Assembly (NCBI GenBank): GCA_029978815.1
Contig: JAPOIQ010000005.1
Span: forward strand, 1-14,500
Reading direction: 5' to 3'
From: a bacterium
Lineage (GTDB): Bacteria; Actinomycetota; Acidimicrobiia; Acidimicrobiales; Ilumatobacteraceae
DNA: 14,500 bases
Below, one piece after another: positions 2,028 to 12,188 of the stretch. The notes beneath the pieces are model-generated. The model made no database searches, was not told where the DNA came from, and saw only the letters and a list, made by a program, of their open reading frames with translations. Position 1 is the stretch's first letter, and the number at the start of each line of letters is the position of its first letter. The translations under genes were made by a program, and so were the position numbers.

Positions 2028-3428
2028 TCAACCCAAGCCGTCTAGGCGAGTAACTGATTCAGCAAATGCCGCTGCGAACGCGTCAATCTGCACCACAACT
2101 GGTGACGGGCCTGCACCACCGGGCGAAGTGCGCATCTTGGTTGCACCGCCCGACTCAAAGTACGCCGCACAATCGGACCCTATTTCTGCAACTGCAAGGT
2201 CCCGAAGATTTGCCTCCCCGCTCAAGTGACGTCGAACGAGTTGCCCGACCTGAGCATGCGCCTGTCGGAACGGCACGCCATTGCGAACCAAATGCTCAGC
2301 GAGGTCAGTCGCGACGAGCAGTTCCGCATCAGCGCATGCTGCCATCCGCTCAGTATCAAATTCAGCAGTGCCGATCATGCCGGCAATTGCGGCGAGCGCC
2401 AGCACTGTCTGTTCAACCGAATCAAAGAGAGGCTCTTTGTCCTCCTGCAGGTCACGGTTATACGCGAGCGGAAGGGCTTTCAACGTGGCGAGCAACCCCG
2501 TCAGATTGCCAATCAATCGGCCAGACTTGCCGCGCGCGAGTTCGGCAATGTCAGCATTCTTCTTCTGCGGCAACATCGATGAGCCAGTCGCATAGGCGTC
2601 GTCCAGACGAGCGAACCCGAACTCCTCCGACGTCCACAACACCCACTCCTCTCCAATTCGCGAGAGGTGGATACCGATGAGCGACAGAGCAAACAATGTC
2701 TCAGCGACAAAGTCACGGTCACTCACCGCATCGAGTGAGTTCGCGAACGTTGAAGCAAAACCAAGATCTTCGGCTGTTGTTACGGGATCAATCGCAATCG
2801 ATGTGCCCGCAAGAGCACCCGCACCAAGAGGAGACACATCGAGACGGTGGTACGCATCAACGAGTCGATCGAGGTCACGATGCAGCGACCACGCATGTGC
2901 AAGTAGATGGTGCGCAAGCATGACCGGCTGCGCGCGTTGCAGGTGGGTGTACCCAGGCAGGTAGGCATCGCCCGCCTGCCGAGCCCGATCGAGCAGCACC
3001 CGTTGAAGATTGATCACACCGGACGCAACCTCAGTAATCGCACCTTTCGTCCACAACCGAAGGTCGGTAGCGACCTGATCGTTGCGGCTACGCGCCGTGT
3101 GCAAGCGTGCTCCTGCATCTCCAGCAATCTCTGTCACTCGCCGTTCGACAGCAGTGTGAATGTCTTCGTCACCTTCGTGGAACTCGAATGTTCCAGAGGC
3201 AAATTCACCATGGACCTTGTCAAGGGCATCAAGGACAACTTCAACCTCTGCAGTGGACAGCACCCCAGCTCGACCCAACCCGCGAACATGTGCCTTCGAC
3301 CCTCGGATGTCAACTTCCCATAGCCGACGGTCAAACGGGAGGCTCGCTGTGTACGCCATCAACGCCTCTGCAGGTCCGCCCGCAAACCTGCCGTGCCACA
3401 ACGACTCTGAGCTCTTCTCTTCAGCCAT
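2028..3428 (-). CDS. argH: Argininosuccinate lyase
   Basis: Splits argininosuccinate into arginine and fumarate, the last step of arginine synthesis, in the cytoplasm as a homotetramer of the fumarase/aspartase superfamily. The protein is 466 residues, the usual length. It has HTARSRNDQ at 110-118, the catalytic-His segment GYTHLQRAQP at 159-168, and the mobile signature loop GSSMLPQKKNAD at 282-293 with the catalytic Ser. In that loop most relatives read MMPQKKNPD, so Leu and Ala here are mild substitutions. The ATG at 3428 has GGAGGA a few bases upstream; the reading frame is open further upstream, but that part has no homology and lies over argR. The start overlaps the argR stop in ATGGCTGA (8 bases), which suggests coupled translation. 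marC follows after 4 bases. argG, which usually sits just before argH in actinobacterial clusters, is missing. Confidence 0.97.
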   Translation of the reverse strand: MAEEKSSESLWHGRFAGGPAEALMAYTASLPFDRRLWEVDIRGSKAHVRGLGRAGVLSTAEVEVVLDALDKVHGEFASGTFEFHEGDEDIHTAVERRVTEIAGDAGARLHTARSRNDQVATDLRLWTKGAITEVASGVINLQRVLLDRARQAGDAYLPGYTHLQRAQPVMLAHHLLAHAWSLHRDLDRLVDAYHRLDVSPLGAGALAGTSIAIDPVTTAEDLGFASTFANSLDAVSDRDFVAETLFALSLIGIHLSRIGEEWVLWTSEEFGFARLDDAYATGSSMLPQKKNADIAELARGKSGRLIGNLTGLLATLKALPLAYNRDLQEDKEPLFDSVEQTVLALAAIAGMIGTAEFDTERMAACADAELLVATDLAEHLVRNGVPFRQAHAQVGQLVRRHLSGEANLRDLAVAEIGSDCAAYFESGGATKMRTSPGGAGPSPVVVQIDAFAAAFAESVTRLDGLG

Positions 3429-3906
3429 GGTGTACTCCTCCGTCAATTCCCGCGAGCTGGCGAAGTTGTGATGCAAGCTCTCTTCCCGTTGAGTCCTCAG
3501 ATGCAATACAGAGGACTGTGTCATCTCCTGCGACAGTGCCGATAAGACCGTCGACGGCACTTCGATCAAGCGCCGAAGCAACCACGTGCGCACAACCAGG
3601 AGGGGTACGCACAACAACCAAATTTGCTGAACTCGTCACCTCGCCAACCCACTCGCCCATCACCCGGCGAAGTTGCTCTAACGGCGCGACACGATCAGGT
3701 GCGAACTCAGGCAGGGCATACACCGACGACCCAGAAGCTGTGCGCACTTTGATCGCTCCGAGATCGTCAAGGTCACGCGACACAGTTGCTTGAGTGGCGG
3801 AAACCTGCTCGGACAGCAACAGTTCGACGAGCTGTGCCTGGTTACCAACCTCATGCTGCTCAATGAAGCGCGAAATCAATTGCTGGCGACGAACCTTCAC
3901 ACTCAC
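3421..3906 (-). CDS. argR: Arginine repressor ArgR
   Basis: Arginine-responsive transcription regulator of the ArgR/AhrC family, active as a hexamer that binds ARG boxes when arginine is bound. The protein has 161 residues. The N-terminal winged helix-turn-helix covers about residues 1-70, with the recognition region VSATQATVSRDLDDLGAIKV (35-54). The C-terminal oligomerisation and arginine-binding domain covers about 85-161 and carries GTVAGDDT (123-130), whose two Asp residues contact arginine in known structures. The start codon is GTG at 3906, overlapping the argF stop in GTGA, with AGGTGG upstream as a modest ribosome site. The gene lies inside the operon it should control, so ArgR is expected to limit its own synthesis through the operators before argC. 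Confidence 0.96.
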   Translation of the reverse strand: MSVKVRRQQLISRFIEQHEVGNQAQLVELLLSEQVSATQATVSRDLDDLGAIKVRTASGSSVYALPEFAPDRVAPLEQLRRVMGEWVGEVTSSANLVVVRTPPGCAHVVASALDRSAVDGLIGTVAGDDTVLCIASEDSTGRELASQLRQLAGIDGGVHHG

Positions 3907-4808
3907 CTCACACCACCTAAGAATGCGAGCACACCTCGAGCGGCATGCATGCGGTCGTGACCCTGACGAATCACCCGAGAAGCAGGACCGTCGATCACCG
4001 ATGCAGCGACCTCATAGCCCCGGTAGGCCGGAAGACAGTGCATAAAGATGGCGCCAGGCGACGCAGCAGCCATGAGTTGATCGGTCACGCTGAACGACGC
4101 AAAAATCCGACGCCGCTCTTCAACCTCATCTTCTTGCCCCATCGACACCCACGTATCGGTATGAACCGCATCAGTTCCACTAACCGCCTCCACCGGATCA
4201 TCCGTCGATATGACATGCCCGGATCCCAGCGATGAAAGGCGCTCACACTCCTGAGCGGATGGCTGGAAACCATCTGGGCATGCAAAGGAAATTGACATGC
4301 CCGACATCAGGCAGGCCTCGGCAAGCGACCTTGCAACGTTGTTGTAATCGCCAACCCACGCAACATTGCGACCAGACAGCGAACCGAACTCGTGGCGCAT
4401 CGTCCGAAGGTCAGCAAGGGCCTGCAGCGGATGCGACCGGTCAGACAGCATGTTGACAATCGGCACGGTCGACAATGCCGCCATGCGCTCCACCACGCTG
4501 TGCGAAAACACACGCGCTGCAACCATCGAGTGATAACCCTCAAGAATCTCAATGACGTCCTCAACCGACTCGCGCACGTCAAGACCGACCTCCTCGCCGC
4601 GGGTGTACACCGGGTGACCACCGAGTTGGACAACCGCCATCTCCATCGACTGACGAGTTCGGTTCGACGGCTTCTCAAAAATGAGCGCCACACCGCCACC
4701 AGAGAGTGGCTGACCAAGGTCGACAATCGGACGATCGGAGAGGTCGCCAACAAGCGCAAGTTCGTCGGCAGAAAGATCGACGATATTGAGAAGGTGACGC
4801 ACCGTCAT
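3903..4808 (-). CDS. argF: Ornithine carbamoyltransferase
   Basis: Joins carbamoyl phosphate and ornithine to give citrulline. The protein has 301 residues and two domains. The carbamoyl-phosphate site is FEKPSNRTR at 44-52, with HPLQ at 126-129. The ornithine side has DTW and SMGQE around 218-226, HCLP at 257-260 with the catalytic Cys258, and DRMHAARG at 285-292. The SMG motif supports ornithine rather than aspartate or acetylornithine as substrate. One oddity is that the widely conserved S-T/G-R-T-R loop reads S-N-R-T-R here, and HCLPAHRG reads HCLPAYRG. All other key residues are intact, so an active enzyme is likely. The ATG at 4808 overlaps the argD stop in ATGA, and the stop overlaps the argR GTG, so translation is probably coupled on both sides. 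The start has GGAG about 7 bases upstream. Confidence 0.96.
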   Translation of the reverse strand: MTVRHLLNIVDLSADELALVGDLSDRPIVDLGQPLSGGGVALIFEKPSNRTRQSMEMAVVQLGGHPVYTRGEEVGLDVRESVEDVIEILEGYHSMVAARVFSHSVVERMAALSTVPIVNMLSDRSHPLQALADLRTMRHEFGSLSGRNVAWVGDYNNVARSLAEACLMSGMSISFACPDGFQPSAQECERLSSLGSGHVISTDDPVEAVSGTDAVHTDTWVSMGQEDEVEERRRIFASFSVTDQLMAAASPGAIFMHCLPAYRGYEVAASVIDGPASRVIRQGHDRMHAARGVLAFLGGVR

Positions 4809-6010
4809 GATGTGCTCCTCACATTGGCAATCGCCGCCATGAGAATGCTCATTGCCTCCTCGATCTCTTCATCAGACGCGGTGAGAGGCGGGGCAAGTCG
4901 AATTGTTGCCGCATTCACTGCATTCACGATGAGCCCATTCGCAAGCGCCTCAGCGGCTACATCTCCCGCAGCGATGCCCTCTTCGAGCGCAACACCGAGC
5001 AGTAACCCGCTGCCACGAACGCCGACGACACCCTCAGTTCCGTCGAGCAGCGCTCTGATTTTTGCCTCTCCTGCAAGAGCGAGACCCGGTGCATCAAGCC
5101 GTTTCATCTCAGAAATCACGGTCTCAACAGCAGCGGTAGCGAGTGCGGTTCCGCTATAGGTGCTCCCGTGATCACCTGGGACAAATGCCGCTGCAACTTC
5201 AACCGGCGCCCAGCACGCCCCAATTGGCATACCGTTACCCATCGCTTTCGCCAGGGTGACAACATCTGGAGACACGCCCGAATGTTCGAATCCGAACCAT
5301 TTGCCAGTTCGCGCAAAACCGGTCTGTACCTCATCGATCATCATGAGAACACCCTTGCGGGTGCACATTTCACGCACTCCTTCGAGGTAGCCGTCAGGGG
5401 CAGGGTTCACTCCCCCTTCACCCTGCACCGATTCGAGGAATACCGCCCCGACGGTCTCATCGACGGCGGCTTCAATTGCGGAGAGATCGCCCCACGGAAC
5501 GTGAACAAATCCGTCCGGCATTGGCGCAAAGGGTTCATGTTTCGCCGGTTGACCAGTCGCCGCCAACGTTGCGAGAGTCCGCCCATGAAATGAGCCAAGC
5601 GCCGTCACAACCTTGTGACGACCTGGGCCAGCATGTTTGCGGGCAAGCTTCAACGCGCACTCATTCGCCTCGGCACCAGAGTTCGTGAAGAACACCTGCC
5701 CGGGGCGTCCCGTTGCCTCTGTCAGAAGACTGTCGACCGACATCGCAGCAGCAGTCGCTACCGGGTTCGCAAAAAAGTTGCTCACATGCACCAACTTGCG
5801 CGCCTGTTCCGCAATTGCGTCGGCAATGACTGGATTCGAGTGCCCCAGCGACACGACAGCGATACCTGCGAGAAAGTCGAGATAGCGCGTGCCATCGGTT
5901 GCGAACACTTCGGTACCTACACCGCGCTCAAGCATGAGCGCCGGAGGGCCAAACACCGGCATAAACGGGCAATGCCCGACCGCAGTCGAGGTATCAAACG
6001 TATGTCCCAT
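4805..6010 (-). CDS. argD: Acetylornithine aminotransferase
   Basis: Pyridoxal-phosphate enzyme that converts N-acetylglutamate semialdehyde to N-acetylornithine with glutamate as amino donor. It is a class III aminotransferase of 401 residues, normal for ArgD. Visible motifs are FTNSGAEANE (108-117, cofactor phosphate region), SFHGRT (140-145), IDEVQTGFARTG (225-236, with Asp226 for the pyridine nitrogen) and TLAKAMGNGMPIGA (252-265), where Lys255 is the Schiff-base lysine. The start at ATG 6010 is one base after the argB stop, with GGAGA just upstream; the frame continues upstream but covers argB and has no homology. Such enzymes often also serve as succinyldiaminopimelate aminotransferase in lysine synthesis; the sequence does not decide that here. 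Confidence 0.96.
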   Translation of the reverse strand: MGHTFDTSTAVGHCPFMPVFGPPALMLERGVGTEVFATDGTRYLDFLAGIAVVSLGHSNPVIADAIAEQARKLVHVSNFFANPVATAAAMSVDSLLTEATGRPGQVFFTNSGAEANECALKLARKHAGPGRHKVVTALGSFHGRTLATLAATGQPAKHEPFAPMPDGFVHVPWGDLSAIEAAVDETVGAVFLESVQGEGGVNPAPDGYLEGVREMCTRKGVLMMIDEVQTGFARTGKWFGFEHSGVSPDVVTLAKAMGNGMPIGACWAPVEVAAAFVPGDHGSTYSGTALATAAVETVISEMKRLDAPGLALAGEAKIRALLDGTEGVVGVRGSGLLLGVALEEGIAAGDVAAEALANGLIVNAVNAATIRLAPPLTASDEEIEEAMSILMAAIANVRSTS

Positions 6011-6011
6011 C

Positions 6012-6896
6012 TCAGTCTCCGTTCTGATCTGCCGGATTGTGCACCATCGTGCCAACGCCTGCATCGGTAAAAAGTTCAAGCAACAGTGCGTGCGGGGTTC
6101 GCCCGTCAAGGATGTGGGCCCGGCCAACACCATGACGAACAGCAGAAATACAGCTCGCAACTTTTGGAATCATCCCGCCATCGATAATCCCGTCACTAAT
6201 GAGTTGCTCCAACTCGGAAGGAGTGGTCTGGCGAATGAGCGAAGCGGCATCAGCAATATCGCGCCGAAGGCCATCAATATCGGTGAGGTACACGAGCTTT
6301 TCGGCTCCAAGCGCAGCCGCTATCTCGCCGGCCACGGTGTCAGCATTGATATTGAACGCCTGTCCTTCAGCATCAGCGCCAACGGTTGCGACCACCGGGA
6401 TGAACTCATCATCGAGCAACCTCTGCAACACGCCCGGGTTAATCGATGCGATGTCCCCAACAAACCCAAGTTCTGGATTACGTGCCACCGCCCTAATGAG
6501 CCCACCATCTTCTCCGCTCACACCAACCGCATAGTCACCATGAACATTGATTGCTGACACGATCTGGGGGTTGACTTGGCCGATGAGAACCATGCGCGCA
6601 ATGTCGACAGTTTCGGCGTCAGTGACCCGCAAACCATCTTTGAACTCTGCGGTCTTACCAAGTCGTTCCATCAGCTCACTGATCTGAGGACCGCCGCCAT
6701 GAACCACAACCGGGCGCATTCCGACGAGCCGCATCATCACGATGTCGGTTGCGAAGACGGCAAGCGCATCATCTCCCGAGGTGCCAGCCAAGGCATTGCC
6801 TCCATATTTCACAACGATGGTGCGGCCTGCAAAACGGCGAATGTACGGAAGCGCTTCAACGAGTATTGCGGCGCGCTGAGCGGCAACGTCGGTCAT
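6012..6896 (-). CDS. argB: Acetylglutamate kinase, probably arginine-inhibited
   Basis: Phosphorylates N-acetylglutamate with ATP, usually the controlled step when arginine synthesis uses the acetyl cycle. The protein has 294 residues of the amino-acid kinase fold. It shows VVKYGGNAL (28-36) and HGGGPQI (66-72) for nucleotide and substrate, RVTD (90-93), and NINADTVAGEIA with YLTDIDGL in the C-terminal half. The N-terminal helix before the first strand contains EALPYIRRFAGRT (14-26), the extension found in arginine-sensitive kinases of Pseudomonas and Thermotoga and absent from the insensitive E. coli enzyme. This predicts feedback inhibition by arginine in addition to ArgR control. The ATG at 6896 overlaps the argC stop in ATGA. 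argJ, usually between argC and argB, is not present. Confidence 0.97.
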   Translation of the reverse strand: MTDVAAQRAAILVEALPYIRRFAGRTIVVKYGGNALAGTSGDDALAVFATDIVMMRLVGMRPVVVHGGGPQISELMERLGKTAEFKDGLRVTDAETVDIARMVLIGQVNPQIVSAINVHGDYAVGVSGEDGGLIRAVARNPELGFVGDIASINPGVLQRLLDDEFIPVVATVGADAEGQAFNINADTVAGEIAAALGAEKLVYLTDIDGLRRDIADAASLIRQTTPSELEQLISDGIIDGGMIPKVASCISAVRHGVGRAHILDGRTPHALLLELFTDAGVGTMVHNPADQNGD

Positions 6897-7942
6897 GGTG
6901 CGACTCCAATCCGGTCGAGTCCTAATGTTTCGTCAATACCGAGCGCAACGTTGAGGGCTTGAATCGCCCCACCGGAGGCACCCTTCGCAAGGTTGTCAAG
7001 CGCCGAGATCGTGATGATCGTGTCGGTTCGTTCGTCGTATCGTCCCGTCACGAGCACGAGGTTGGACCCAAGTGTTGCTTTGGTTCCGGGAATACCCTCG
7101 ATGACTTTGACGAACGGCTCATCGGCGTATTGCGCCTGAAGCGTTTCCAATACGGCCTCTTGCGACCTTGCACCATCATGTGCCGGCGTCGAGTAACAGG
7201 TCGCGAGAATGCCTCGGTTCATCGGCACAAGGTGCGGAGTGAACAAGACGCGCGCGCCAATCTCTTGTTCCATCTCTGGGGTATGCCGATGCCGAAGGAG
7301 GCCATAGGCAGTGAAGTTTTCGTCAACTGTCGTGAAGGCGTAGGCGAGGTCCTCTTTACGACCAGCTCCTGTCACACCACTTGCTGCATCCACAATCACC
7401 GTGTCCGAACTCATGAGCCCAGCGTCAACGAGCGGGCGAACTGCGAGAATTGCCGCAGTTACGTAACACCCTGGGGTTGCAATGAGAGATGCGCCCAACA
7501 GTTCGTCGCGATGAAACTCGGGAAGCCCGTACACCGCTTTGGCAAGAGCTTCGGGCTGGTCATGATCGAACCCGTAATAGATCGGGTACTGAGACGCATC
7601 CGTCAATCGGAAGGCGGCGCTGAGGTCAACGATATGTCCGACTCTGTTTGACAACTCAGGGACGATCTCCATTGATGCTTCGTGAGGAAGGCCTAAAAAT
7701 ACGACGTCGAGGCCGTCGAGTTGATCGATATCAAACTCCGCGAAACATGCCGCGCCATGAGCTGCTGCCATCGATGGATATAGGTCCGCAACACGTTCTC
7801 CGGCCTGAGATGCCGCCTGCAGAGTCTCAACGGCAAGCGCCGGATGGCGGTCGATCACCCGGAGCAACTCGGCGCCAGTAAACCCAGAGGCTCCGACGAC
7901 GCCGACAGACGTTGGAGCAAGAGAAAGATTGTTCCCACCCAT
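6893..7942 (-). CDS. argC: N-acetyl-gamma-glutamyl-phosphate reductase
   Basis: NADPH-dependent reduction of N-acetylglutamyl phosphate to the semialdehyde; first gene of the arg operon. The protein has 349 residues from ATG 7942. The Rossmann motif VGVVGASGFTGAELLR is at 13-28, the catalytic Cys159 lies in ATPGCYVT (155-162), and HRHTPEMEQ (218-226) provides the conserved His region. The reading frame stays open upstream, but those codons lie over the promoter and operator palindromes and have no homology, so the ATG at 7942 is preferred. No Shine-Dalgarno sequence precedes it; TATACT ends 8 bases before it, which suggests a leaderless or very short-leader mRNA. It is divergent from the YqgE/AlgH gene, 79 bases apart. 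Confidence 0.95.
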   Translation of the reverse strand: MGGNNLSLAPTSVGVVGASGFTGAELLRVIDRHPALAVETLQAASQAGERVADLYPSMAAAHGAACFAEFDIDQLDGLDVVFLGLPHEASMEIVPELSNRVGHIVDLSAAFRLTDASQYPIYYGFDHDQPEALAKAVYGLPEFHRDELLGASLIATPGCYVTAAILAVRPLVDAGLMSSDTVIVDAASGVTGAGRKEDLAYAFTTVDENFTAYGLLRHRHTPEMEQEIGARVLFTPHLVPMNRGILATCYSTPAHDGARSQEAVLETLQAQYADEPFVKVIEGIPGTKATLGSNLVLVTGRYDERTDTIITISALDNLAKGASGGAIQALNVALGIDETLGLDRIGVAP

Positions 7943-7960
7943 AACGAATGAGTATACAGA
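7943..7960 (-). promoter_or_regulatory. Candidate ARG box 1 (proximal), overlapping the argC -10 box
   Basis: Plus-strand reading AACGAATGAGTATACAGA keeps the GAAT-N4-ATTC layout of the ARG box with one mismatch (ATAC for ATTC, then A). It lies directly before the argC start and contains the -10 box. Its centre is 20 bases from the stronger box 2, the spacing expected for tandem operators bound by one ArgR hexamer. Confidence 0.5.
7951..7956 (-). promoter_or_regulatory. -10 box of the argC promoter
   Basis: On the minus strand this reads TATACT, five of six matches to TATAAT. It is followed by CATTCGTT and then the argC ATG, so the first transcribed base falls at or 1-2 bases before the start codon. 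A weak -35 candidate, TCGAAT, lies 17 bases upstream within ARG box 2, so ArgR binding would block polymerase. Confidence 0.6.
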
Positions 7961-7962
7961 AG

Positions 7963-7980
7963 TCCGAATAGAAATTCGAC
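7963..7980 (-). promoter_or_regulatory. Candidate ARG box 2 (distal), upstream of argC
   Basis: Plus-strand reading TCCGAATAGAAATTCGAC contains the perfect inverted repeat CGAAT-AGAA-ATTCG, matching the centre of the enterobacterial ARG box (TGAAT-WWWW-ATTCA) except for the outermost pair and a G in the spacer. It covers the space between the -10 and -35 regions of the argC promoter. With argR encoded in the same operon, ArgR is the natural ligand. Confidence 0.65.
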
Positions 7981-8009
7981 TCTCCCCCGCTACCGACAAC
8001 CGCCGGCGG

Positions 8010-8015
8010 TAAAAT
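8010..8015 (+). promoter_or_regulatory. -10 box of a leaderless promoter for the YqgE/AlgH gene
   Basis: TAAAAT matches TATAAT in five of six positions. It is followed by the 6 bases TGGCGG and then ATG at 8022, placing the predicted first transcribed base on the A of the start codon. No good -35 box is seen. Confidence 0.5.
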
Positions 8016-8021
8016 TGGCGG

Positions 8022-8585
8022 ATGTTTACTGGCAGGACGCGCAGCCAACTCCTTGTCGCATCGCCGCCACTCGACGACCCAAACTTCGATCGCTCAGTCG
8101 TCTACATCATTGACCACAACGAAGACGGGGCAATTGGCGTCGTTATCAACAGACCACTCGCGGATCCTGAGCTCGAACCGATCTCACGGTGGGAAAGCGC
8201 CCTTACCGAGCCACCAGTGGTGTTCAGTGGCGGACCCGTCGACCCGGCCGCTCTGATCGCGTTAGGAGTTACGTCGACACCAGTTGAACATGACATCGAG
8301 GGCGCTGTGCAAGTTGCTGATCGAGTCTGGTCAATCGACCTTGCAGGAGATCCAGCCTTGATTGCGCCTTACTTTGCGGGCATCCGCATCTTCAGCGGGT
8401 ACGCAGGGTGGTCCCCCGGACAACTTGAAGCCGAGATAGATGCAGGCGGTTGGATTGTCGTCGCCGCAGAGACAAACGACGTGTTCGGAAATCAGCCCTC
8501 AGAACTTTGGCGACGGGTGCTCGAACGCCAACCACCACCGGTGAGCTGGCTTGCAAATGCACCAAGCGACGTCAACCTCAACTGA
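8022..8585 (+). CDS. YqgE/AlgH family protein (UPF0301)
   Basis: A 187-residue cytoplasmic protein of the YqgE/AlgH (DUF179) family. Its biochemical role is not established; the AlgH name comes from an effect on alginate genes in Pseudomonas. Family marks are the N-terminal QLLVASPPLDDPNFDRSVV (9-27), HNEDGAIGVVINRPL (32-46), the FSGGPVDP turn (about 68-75) and the IFSGYAGWSPGQLEAEI block (about 123-139). ATG at 8022 gives the N-terminus usual for the family. No Shine-Dalgarno sequence is present; the TAAAAT box 6 bases upstream suggests leaderless translation. It is divergent from argC and convergent with pheT, whose stop is 26 bases away; no obvious terminator hairpin lies in that short gap. 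Confidence 0.93.
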   Translation: MFTGRTRSQLLVASPPLDDPNFDRSVVYIIDHNEDGAIGVVINRPLADPELEPISRWESALTEPPVVFSGGPVDPAALIALGVTSTPVEHDIEGAVQVADRVWSIDLAGDPALIAPYFAGIRIFSGYAGWSPGQLEAEIDAGGWIVVAAETNDVFGNQPSELWRRVLERQPPPVSWLANAPSDVNLN

Positions 8586-10981: not shown

Positions 10982-11998
10982 TCAGAACTGCTCAATGAAT
11001 CGGATGTCGTTGACATACATGTCGCGAATATCAGTGATTCCATGTCGCATCACGGCCATTCGGTCGATGCCGAAACCGAACGCGAATCCACTCCACTCTT
11101 CAGGATCAACACCACCAGCGCGAAGCACCTCAGGATGCACCATTCCACACCCACCAAGTTCAAGCCAGGATCCGTCAGGGCGTCGAATATCAAACTCCGC
11201 TGACGGCTCGGTGAACGGGAAATACGAGGGACGCAAACGCGAGGTGAAGCCCTCCCCAAAGAACGCCTGGGTAAACGCCTCAATCGTCCCCGCGAGATCA
11301 GCCATCGAAATATTGCGATCAACGACTAAGCCCTCGATTTGGTGGAACACAGGCATATGAGTCGCATCGGGGGTGTCCCGGCGGAACACCCGACCTGGGG
11401 CAACGATGTAAATAGGTGGTTCTGACTCAAGCATCGTGCGGATCTGAACCGGAGATGTATGGGTTCTTAAGAGCAGGCCAGAGTCGCCAGGGCCTTCGTT
11501 CTCGTCGTGTCCGACGAACAGGGTGTCGAATTCACCGCGCGCCGGATGGCCCTCACCCATGTTGAGCGCCTCGAAGTTATGCCAGTCAGTTTCAACCTCG
11601 GGGCCCTCCGCAACGGTGAAGCCAAGTCCAACGAAGACGTCCTCTAGTTCCTGCCATGCCTGCGTCACAAGATGGAGATGACCGCGGCTTGCTCGATCCA
11701 TTGCTTCGGTCAGATCAAGTCGTTCTGCTTCAACCCGAGCATTTCGCTCTGCAGAAACGAGTTGGGTGCGACGATCCTCAATTGCGGCGCCGACCAAAGA
11801 AAACGCCTCATTCAGCGCTCGACCAAGCGCTTTGCGCTCTTCAATATCTGAAACCTTCGACAGCGAAGCCTTGAGCCCACCGAGTACGCCTTTTTTACCC
11901 ATCGTCTCTGCAGAAACGGCATCGACCGTCTCAAGCGTTGTTGCCTCTTGAACTCGACTCAATGCGGCCTCAATTGCCGCTGTGATGTCATCCGTCAC
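10982..11998 (-). CDS. pheS: Phenylalanyl-tRNA synthetase alpha subunit
   Basis: Catalytic alpha chain of phenylalanyl-tRNA synthetase, a class II enzyme. It has 338 residues. An N-terminal coiled-coil arm for tRNA lies at about 1-100. The catalytic domain includes THTSPVQIRTM (180-190), motif 2 as RVFRRDTPDATHMPVFHQIEG (203-223; Arg203, Arg206, Arg207 and the His pair visible) and motif 3 as GFAFGFGIDRMAVMRHGI (304-321) with the ATP-binding Arg. The start is GTG at 11998 with a strong AGGAGGA ribosome site (12012-12006) 7 bases upstream. The 202 bases between this gene and the methyltransferase gene hold a separate promoter, a short Phe-containing reading frame and several hairpins, so pheST is probably controlled apart from the upstream ribosomal genes. 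Confidence 0.97.
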   Translation of the reverse strand: MTDDITAAIEAALSRVQEATTLETVDAVSAETMGKKGVLGGLKASLSKVSDIEERKALGRALNEAFSLVGAAIEDRRTQLVSAERNARVEAERLDLTEAMDRASRGHLHLVTQAWQELEDVFVGLGFTVAEGPEVETDWHNFEALNMGEGHPARGEFDTLFVGHDENEGPGDSGLLLRTHTSPVQIRTMLESEPPIYIVAPGRVFRRDTPDATHMPVFHQIEGLVVDRNISMADLAGTIEAFTQAFFGEGFTSRLRPSYFPFTEPSAEFDIRRPDGSWLELGGCGMVHPEVLRAGGVDPEEWSGFAFGFGIDRMAVMRHGITDIRDMYVNDIRFIEQF

Positions 11999-12005
11999 GA
12001 AATTG

Positions 12006-12012
12006 TCCTCCT
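12006..12012 (-). promoter_or_regulatory. Shine-Dalgarno site of pheS
   Basis: AGGAGGA on the minus strand, 7 bases before the GTG start at 11998. It is the strongest ribosome site in the region and decides the pheS start. I see no complementary pyrimidine run in the leader that could hide it. Confidence 0.85.
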
Positions 12013-12032
12013 ACACGTCTTAGCCCAGATCT

Positions 12033-12086
12033 CAAACCAACCAATGGTTTGCCAAACCCCTTGCCCGCCTGGCGGGCTGCCAAACC
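12033..12086 (-). other. Competing stem-loops in the pheST leader
   Basis: On the transcript the 9-base sequence GGTTTGGCA occurs twice, at 12086-12078 and 12058-12050, on both sides of a tight GC hairpin GCCCGCC-A-GGCGGGC (12077-12063). The segment CAAACCA (12051-12045) can pair with either GGTTTG copy or, best, with TGGTTTG (12039-12033; 7 bases, loop of 5). These pairings exclude each other, as expected of a switching leader. No run of U follows any stem, so this is not a plain intrinsic terminator. Confidence 0.45.
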
Positions 12087-12099
12087 TTCTCAGGTGGCG

Positions 12100-12153
12100 T
12101 CACAATCCCCGGACGGGTCGCCCGGGGCAAAGAAATCGACGGGTGAAGGTCAC
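12100..12153 (-). CDS. Putative pheST leader peptide (17 residues)
   Basis: A short frame starting with GTG at 12153 and ending TGA at 12100 encodes MTFTRRFLCPGRPVRGL. It has Phe codons at positions 3 (TTC) and 7 (TTT). The GTG lies exactly 6 bases after the TATGAT -10 box, the spacing seen at other apparently leaderless genes here, so the peptide could be translated from the very 5' end of the pheST mRNA. The GC hairpin overlaps its last codons. By analogy with pheM, the Phe-rich leader peptide of E. coli pheST, it could sense charged tRNA-Phe; two Phe codons is a modest number. The same frame continues upstream to an ATG at 12204 that overlaps the methyltransferase stop, which would give 34 residues; the promoter position favours the shorter form. 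No homologue is recognised. Confidence 0.45.
   Translation of the reverse strand: MTFTRRFLCPGRPVRGL
12107..12127 (-). other. Strong GC hairpin overlapping the end of the leader frame
   Basis: Transcript CCCCGGGCG-ACC-CGTCCGGGG forms a 9-base-pair stem (one G-U pair) with a 3-base loop. It begins 5 bases after the second Phe codon of the short frame, so a ribosome halted at that codon would cover the 5' arm and prevent folding. Confidence 0.6.
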
Positions 12154-12159
12154 CTCATG

Positions 12160-12188
12160 ATCATAGGCATCACGTGTCGAGTGACCAA
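12160..12188 (-). promoter_or_regulatory. Promoter of pheST
   Basis: On the minus strand -35 TTGGTC (12188-12183) and -10 TATGAT (12165-12160) are separated by 17 bases. Five of six -10 positions match the consensus, and the first three of the -35. The predicted start of transcription is near 12153, giving a leader of about 155 bases before pheS. Confidence 0.6.

What the first reader, a model, noticed from the sequence alone, without database searches (positions are those of the whole stretch)
12100..12188. Leaderless Phe-containing leader peptide in front of pheST
A good promoter (TTGGTC-17-TATGAT) is followed after 6 bases by GTG opening a 17-codon frame, MTFTRRFLCPGRPVRGL, with Phe codons 3 and 7. 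Five bases after the second Phe codon begins a 9-base-pair GC hairpin, so a ribosome stalled for lack of Phe-tRNA would melt it. This has the layout of amino-acid attenuation, known for E. coli pheST (pheM), but here the peptide would be read from a leaderless mRNA. The promoter, frame and hairpin are seen; the mechanism is inferred.
Basis: partly seen in the sequence, partly recalled or inferred. Interest (0 to 1): 0.7.

Follow-up and report, generated by a model that had tools for sequence, protein, structure and literature searches.

The report
Leaderless phenylalanine leader before pheS
Before the phenylalanyl-tRNA synthetase genes of many members of one actinobacterial family lies a tiny conserved reading frame that seems to start at the very end of the messenger and meets an RNA hairpin just after one phenylalanine codon, probably a switch that senses phenylalanine supply.

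Summary
Promoter, GTG, 17-codon frame, two Phe codons and 9-bp hairpin are as described. The element recurs before pheS in Ilumatobacteraceae: 53 of 221 genomes match a covariance model, 50 beside pheS, 2 at contig ends, 1 apparently false. Of 53 distinct elements, 51 have a -10 box 6-8 nt before an ATG/GTG, all 51 in the frame of CGA-TTT, 0 in the other frames. The hairpin covaries.

Corrections: only the second Phe codon (TTT, after CGA) is kept beyond the close clade. In many lineages the hairpin's 5' arm and loop can also pair with a downstream segment, with covariation in part of them; the window's own clade shows no clear copy. Tests for an intrinsic terminator or a masked Shine-Dalgarno were negative.

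Best reading: Phe-tRNA-sensing attenuation through a leaderless leader peptide; output step unresolved. Logic as in pheM and the mycobacterial leaderless poly-Cys attenuators, but one conserved sensor codon and a different anatomy. New variant of a known kind.

The parts
12183..12188 (-). -35 box TTGGTC
   Evidence: a TTGGTC-like -35 (5 of 6 or better, spacing 16-19) in 20 of 51 elements against 4 of 255 control windows
12160..12165 (-). -10 box TATGAT, 6 nt before the start codon
   Evidence: TANNNT at 6-8 nt in 51 of 53 elements
12100..12153 (-). leaderless leader-peptide frame MTFTRRFLCPGRPVRGL with stop
   Evidence: frame kept with six different lengths between start and CGA
12133..12138 (-). 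CGA-TTT (Arg-Phe) codon pair, the conserved sensor site
   Evidence: 53 of 53 elements (demanded by the search pattern for 43); both codons are in the minority in pheS of the 46 loci measured
12107..12127 (-). GC hairpin A:B, 9 pairs with one G-U, beginning 5 nt after TTT
   Evidence: covariation in 18 elements
11999..12099 (-). rest of the pheS leader; holds the competing segment C in many other lineages, no clear C in this clade
12007..12012 (-). Shine-Dalgarno AGGAGG of pheS
   Evidence: by sequence
10982..11998 (-). pheS, the gene presumed to be controlled, followed by pheT (10972-8612)
   Evidence: TIGR00468 and TIGR00472 above their cut-offs

Best explanation
The element is a cis-acting attenuator of pheST that senses charged Phe-tRNA. 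Transcription starts at or next to the ATG/GTG, so a ribosome starts the leader peptide at the 5' end of the mRNA without a Shine-Dalgarno sequence (inferred from the -10 spacing). When Phe-tRNA is short, the ribosome waits with TTT in its A site and CGA in its P site; with the usual footprint it then covers about the first five bases of the hairpin's 5' arm (spacing shown, footprint from general knowledge). That blocks the local hairpin A:B and leaves the loop free to pair with segment C where C exists. When Phe is ample, the ribosome runs on to the stop in or after the hairpin, leaves, and A:B re-forms. The state of this RNA sets pheST expression (inferred). The output is unresolved: tests for an intrinsic terminator and for Shine-Dalgarno masking were negative, so my guess is conditional, perhaps Rho-assisted, termination in the leader (about 0.35), with control of translation as close second (about 0.3). 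In the window's own clade only frame, codon and hairpin are shown.
For: Frame: 51 of 53 with leaderless spacing, all in frame. Codon: CGA-TTT in 53 of 53, though TTT averages 5.6% of Phe codons and CGA 11.7% of Arg codons in pheS of the 37 loci above 60% GC. Hairpin: 144 of 144 cells paired and 18 two-sided changes against 5.2 in shuffles, 0 of 500 as high. Gene: the 13 class-wide matches at E <= 1e-4 all lie before pheS; 50 of 53 family matches likewise, 2 more at contig ends. Alternative pairing A:C: mean z -2.28, 30 of 53 at p < 0.05; native beats swapped partners, p 0.0002, for 32 distinct A sequences; loop half covaries, 20 two-sided cells against 9.2 in shuffles, 0 of 500 as high. Precedent: leaderless Cys-codon frames that attenuate downstream genes in M. 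smegmatis (passages).
Against: One conserved Phe codon only, where known leader peptides usually repeat the codon. All of it is comparative: no transcript or ribosome data. No output found: masked folding gives no Shine-Dalgarno effect beyond shuffles (4 of 25 and 3 of 25 replicate means as high), C:SD pairs are no better than shuffles (2 of 37 at p < 0.05), C has no downstream partner (0 of 36). A:C shows no co-change beyond the core among 15 five-C lineages (p 0.55) and no clear C in the window's clade (6) or the short-leader clade (4). In the masked folds the stalled state lowers pairing of A with downstream sequence from 0.57 to 0.23 on average (41 elements; five of the eight positions scored are masked). 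The number of pairs with two-sided change and of pair types does not exceed shuffles (294 and 247 of 500). CGA and the TTT spelling are conserved too, which sensing of Phe alone does not explain.
Confidence: 0.62

Rival explanations
1. Arrest or slow-codon device not specific for Phe: CGA-TTT followed by a tight hairpin makes ribosomes pause whatever the Phe level, and the pause sets pheST expression or couples it to general translation.
For: CGA is as invariant as TTT (53 of 53), and the spelling TTT is kept where TTC would be usual, which points to decoding speed or base-level constraint; the hairpin begins at a fixed distance after TTT.
Against: The link is to the Phe-tRNA synthetase gene only and the kept codon is Phe; the codon after TTT is free (12 different ones in 53), unlike known arrest peptides (recalled).
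Confidence: 0.2
2. Protein- or RNA-binding operator: PheRS or another factor binds the hairpin with the CGAUUU flank, and the frame is incidental.
For: Base-level conservation of CGATTT and a covarying hairpin.
Against: Frame kept with six different start-to-CGA lengths, 51 in frame and 0 out of frame, which an operator does not need. No Rfam family matches the window at gathering score or four loci at E <= 1.
Confidence: 0.08
3. Ordinary promoter and GC-rich 5' UTR; frame and hairpin have no function.
For: In the window alone the hairpin is not extreme for its composition (z -1.62).
Against: Conservation of frame, codon pair, hairpin and place across 14 of 27 genera of the family; 0 of 40 pheS upstream regions in other families have the motif.
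Confidence: 0.04

Closest known systems
pheST attenuator with leader peptide pheM (E. coli; pheM recalled; gamma-proteobacterial pheST attenuators named in PMC1262725, passage seen)
   Same: Same target operon, leader peptide with Phe codons, hairpin close after them.
   Different: pheM is Shine-Dalgarno-led, rich in Phe codons and ends in an intrinsic terminator with a U-run (recalled). Here one conserved Phe codon, leaderless design, no terminator found, another phylum, no sequence likeness seen (not searched for).
Leaderless poly-Cys short ORF attenuators of mycobacteria (Canestrari et al. 2020; paper not held, seen as cited in PMC9031893, PMC13236596 and PMC9094748, passages)
   Same: Leaderless short frame upstream of related genes; ribosome speed at sensor codons proposed to control the genes.
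   Different: Run of Cys codons there, a single TTT after CGA here; other genes; here a covarying hairpin and, in many lineages, a competing partner.
Attenuators before trp, ilv, leuA, trpS and leuS, and T-boxes before ileS, in Actinobacteria (Seliverstov et al. 2005, PMC1262725, passages)
   Same: Leader-peptide logic in the same phylum, also before aminoacyl-tRNA synthetase genes.
   Different: That survey reports no conserved RNA structure before phenylalanine operons in the genomes it studied.
T-box riboswitch
   Same: Would also sense uncharged tRNA before a synthetase gene.
   Different: No Rfam match in the window or in four loci; here a translated frame is kept.

Membership tests
Leader-peptide attenuator (general) | short translated frame before the regulated gene | tested here: met
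   frame conservation, (translation itself not shown)
Leader-peptide attenuator (general) | codon of the amino acid linked to the gene at a conserved place | tested here: met
   TTT in 53 of 53, before pheS; search pattern demanded it for 43
Leader-peptide attenuator (general) | two mutually exclusive RNA structures | tested here: inconclusive
   supported in many other lineages, not in the window's own clade or the short-leader clade
Classical transcription attenuator (pheM type) | intrinsic terminator with U-run | tested here: not met
   no terminator-like site in the window leader; longest T-run 4 or less in 47 elements
Translation attenuator (Shine-Dalgarno masking) | an alternative structure masks the Shine-Dalgarno sequence | tested here: not met
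   masked folding of 45 elements and C:SD duplexes of 37 not beyond shuffles; thermodynamic models only
Leaderless attenuator (mycobacterial poly-Cys type) | frame starts at the 5' end of the mRNA | tested here: inconclusive
   -10 spacing fits in 51 of 53; no 5' ends mapped
Leaderless attenuator (mycobacterial poly-Cys type) | run of sensor codons | tested here: not met
   one conserved Phe codon
T-box or other described RNA family | match to a covariance model of Rfam 15 | tested here: not met
   none in the window at gathering score, none at E <= 1 in L031, L079, L086, L016
Any amino-acid attenuator | expression changes with supply of the amino acid | not testable with these tools
   needs experiment

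The most novel reading that the evidence does not exclude
A distinct class of attenuator: a leaderless ribosome reads a single slow codon pair, CGA-UUU, that sits one footprint before a bistable RNA whose 5' arm and loop swap between a local hairpin and a distant partner. The loop is a toehold that stays open when the stalled ribosome covers the arm. The output uses neither an intrinsic terminator nor Shine-Dalgarno masking but, for example, Rho-dependent termination in the leader.
Probability: 0.3. Interest if true: 0.75.

Novelty: new variant of a known kind. Interest (0 to 1): 0.58.

Why it matters
If true, it would be amino-acid attenuation of an aminoacyl-tRNA synthetase operon in Acidimicrobiia, for which my nine paper searches listed no report, and it would extend leaderless attenuation from mycobacterial cysteine genes to a second amino acid. 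One rare codon pair at a fixed distance from a hairpin with two partners makes it directly testable how little sequence a ribosome-based amino-acid sensor needs, and whether leaderless initiation suits such sensors.

Tried and rejected
Shine-Dalgarno masking: masked folding first gave stall above stop by more than 0.1 in 15 and below in 6 of 45 elements, but shuffled leaders do nearly the same; C:SD duplexes 2 of 37 at p < 0.05, mean weaker than shuffles. Seen by eye as GAGUCC/GGACUC in the L031 group, it did not hold up. C with downstream sequence as a terminator stem: 0 of 36. A second helix B:B' hinted at by consensus folds: 6 of 37 at p < 0.05, mean -12.9 against -11.4, so weak. A helix between AGCGAU and a downstream AUCGCU was seen by eye in some leaders and not tested. 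Model R1 came from an alignment with short loops out of register and was replaced by R2.

Rows left out: L152 (pattern match without pheS) was dropped from the 54, leaving 53. One search used 18 elements (37 nt long, distinct). Searches used 25 typed A/C segments, four-C lineages with a recognisable C only, so the 5-C lineages, the short-leader clade (4) and the window's clade (6) are not in them; C was taken by its GGGG run and in part by best duplex, which favours pairing. The class scan listed 24 weaker matches, of which 17 were fetched and checked. For the other-family control, 40 of the 153 genomes with a match were fetched. One search examined 37 and 36 elements, without the 10 lacking C and those whose locus does not reach pheS.

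Full report
What is in the window. The finding lies on the minus strand between an RlmB/TrmH-like methyltransferase gene (12941-12201; best NCBIfam match below its cut-off) and pheS (11998-10982), which is followed by pheT. A promoter scan finds one site where shuffles give 0.1, and no terminator.

Relatives. The closest named record is an Ilumatobacteraceae MAG with 95% identical PheS (L050). In the genus 15 of 16 genomes gave a PheS match, and 13 of these 15 have the element. Of 85 distinct pheS upstream regions hold CGATTT followed after 5-6 nt by a C-run; one of the 85 has no upstream sequence and one only 97 nt. Two more elements came from the class scan and eight from the family scan: 53 distinct elements.

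Where it occurs. Covariance model R2, from 18 elements, matches 36 of 395 genomes of the class at E <= 0.01. The 13 matches at E <= 1e-4 are all in the window's family and all lie before pheS; the next is at 5.9e-4. Of the 24 weaker matches 17 were fetched and none of these loci holds pheS. In the family 53 of 221 genomes match at E <= 0.003, one match each, in 14 of 27 genera. Compared with the pheS coordinates lie just before pheS, 2 (G081, G103) sit at contig ends, and 1 (G574, L192) shows no element by my pattern. These scans use filters that lose weak matches, so the counts are lower bounds. Many genomes of the family have pheS without the element: 42 of the 85 regions. In 40 pheS upstream regions from genomes of other families of the order, 0 have the motif.

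It behaves as a reading frame. In 51 of 53 elements TANNNT lies 6-8 nt before an ATG or GTG (13 and 38), in frame with CGA-TTT and without a stop between; the other two frames give 0. From start to CGA there are 4, 5, 6, 7, 8 or 12 codons. Relatedness inflates the count of 51, but every change of length is a multiple of three. L090 and L103 miss the cut with gaps of 10 and 9 nt. A -10 so close to the start codon leaves no room for a 5' UTR; that the mRNA is leaderless stays inference until 5' ends are mapped.

What is kept. CGA-TTT is in all 53; the search pattern demanded it for 43 and the model was trained on it, so a variant could have been missed. In pheS of 46 loci TTT is 9.9% of Phe codons and CGA 14.5% of Arg codons; in the 37 loci above 60% GC the means are 5.6% and 11.7%; in the window's own pheS 20% and 35%. 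The next codon is free (12 different ones). Phe codon 3 belongs to the window's clade only; 7 of 51 peptides have a Phe before CGA and 7 of 51 one after TTT. The hairpin starts at a fixed distance and covaries: 144 of 144 cells paired and 18 two-sided changes against 5.2 in shuffles; the number of pairs with such a change (3) and of pair types (8) does not exceed shuffles. In the window's clade the core is 95-100% identical while the part after the hairpin is 52-85%; against four more distant elements it is 73-78% against 17-39%.

A second partner. The 5' arm plus loop (A) is complementary to a segment C further downstream: mean z -2.28 against dinucleotide shuffles, 30 of 53 at p < 0.05, 18 of 53 at p <= 0.01. 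Native partners beat swapped ones for 32 distinct A sequences (p 0.0002) and for the 17 with four Cs (p 0.0002), not for the 15 with five (p 0.55). In 25 segments of four-C lineages the loop half is 78% paired, with 20 two-sided changes against 9.2 in shuffles (0 of 500 as high); one position is G-C in 12 and A-U in 10; pair types do not exceed shuffles. In free leaders A pairs with B at 0.36 and with downstream sequence at 0.57 on average over 41 elements. The window's clade (6) has z -0.04 to -1.55 and A:B at 0.98; the short-leader clade (4) has no C.

Working model. Shown: frame, codon pair, hairpin, spacing, link to pheS and, in many lineages, the alternative pairing. Inferred: with TTT in the A site the ribosome covers about the first five bases of the 5' arm, blocks A:B and leaves the loop for C; without stalling it goes to the stop (18 to 69 nt after CGA) and A:B re-forms. 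As the gene charges tRNA-Phe, starvation should raise its expression.

Output not found. Masked folding shows no gain in Shine-Dalgarno accessibility beyond shuffled leaders (45 elements; 4 of 25 and 3 of 25 replicate means as high; the six elements of the window's clade 2 of 25 and 7 of 25). C:SD pairing is no better than shuffles (2 of 37). C has no downstream partner (0 of 36), and T-runs do not exceed 4 in 47 elements. In the masked folds the stalled state does not raise A:C (0.57 to 0.23, with five of the eight scored bases masked). Rho-dependent termination stays a guess; C (0.347) is somewhat above G (0.298) after the hairpin.

Known systems. Seliverstov et al. 2005 (PMC1262725, passages) report trp, cys, ilv, leu, trpS, leuS and ileS elements in Actinobacteria, none before phenylalanine operons, and name pheST attenuators of gamma-proteobacteria. 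Leaderless poly-Cys frames in mycobacteria were seen only as cited (passages); the paper is not held. No Rfam match. Nine paper searches gave no report of this element; most subscription papers are not in that library.

Verdict. A real, conserved leader of pheST with the marks of a leaderless reading frame and, in many lineages, a bistable hairpin: a new variant of leader-peptide attenuation, most likely Phe-sensing, with the output step open.

Noticed in passing
L026 and L030 (genomes G010, G001 of the window's genus), upstream of pheS: The element is absent; pheS follows the methyltransferase gene closely, and by eye a TAGGGT box lies 7 nt before an in-frame GTG, as if pheS itself were leaderless there.
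   Followed up: partly
L044, L048, L059, L072, pheS leader: Short leaders without segment C; by eye the Shine-Dalgarno AAGGA lies in or near a small hairpin with an upstream TCCTT-like stretch. Possibly another output in this clade.
   Followed up: no
L031, L033, L035, L070, about 25 nt before pheS: A conserved CCCGTACGCTC holds TACGCT, which could be a second promoter giving a short, Shine-Dalgarno-led pheS transcript.
   Followed up: no
53 leader peptides, codons between start and CGA: Few kinds of residue: Gln, Thr, Ser, Arg and Leu prevail, and the codon before CGA is CAG in 29 of 53. Reason unknown.
   Followed up: no
window 2028-8585: argH, argR, an ornithine carbamoyltransferase and an acetylornithine transaminase gene on the minus strand and a YqgE/AlgH-like gene on the plus strand; ordinary.
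   Followed up: partly
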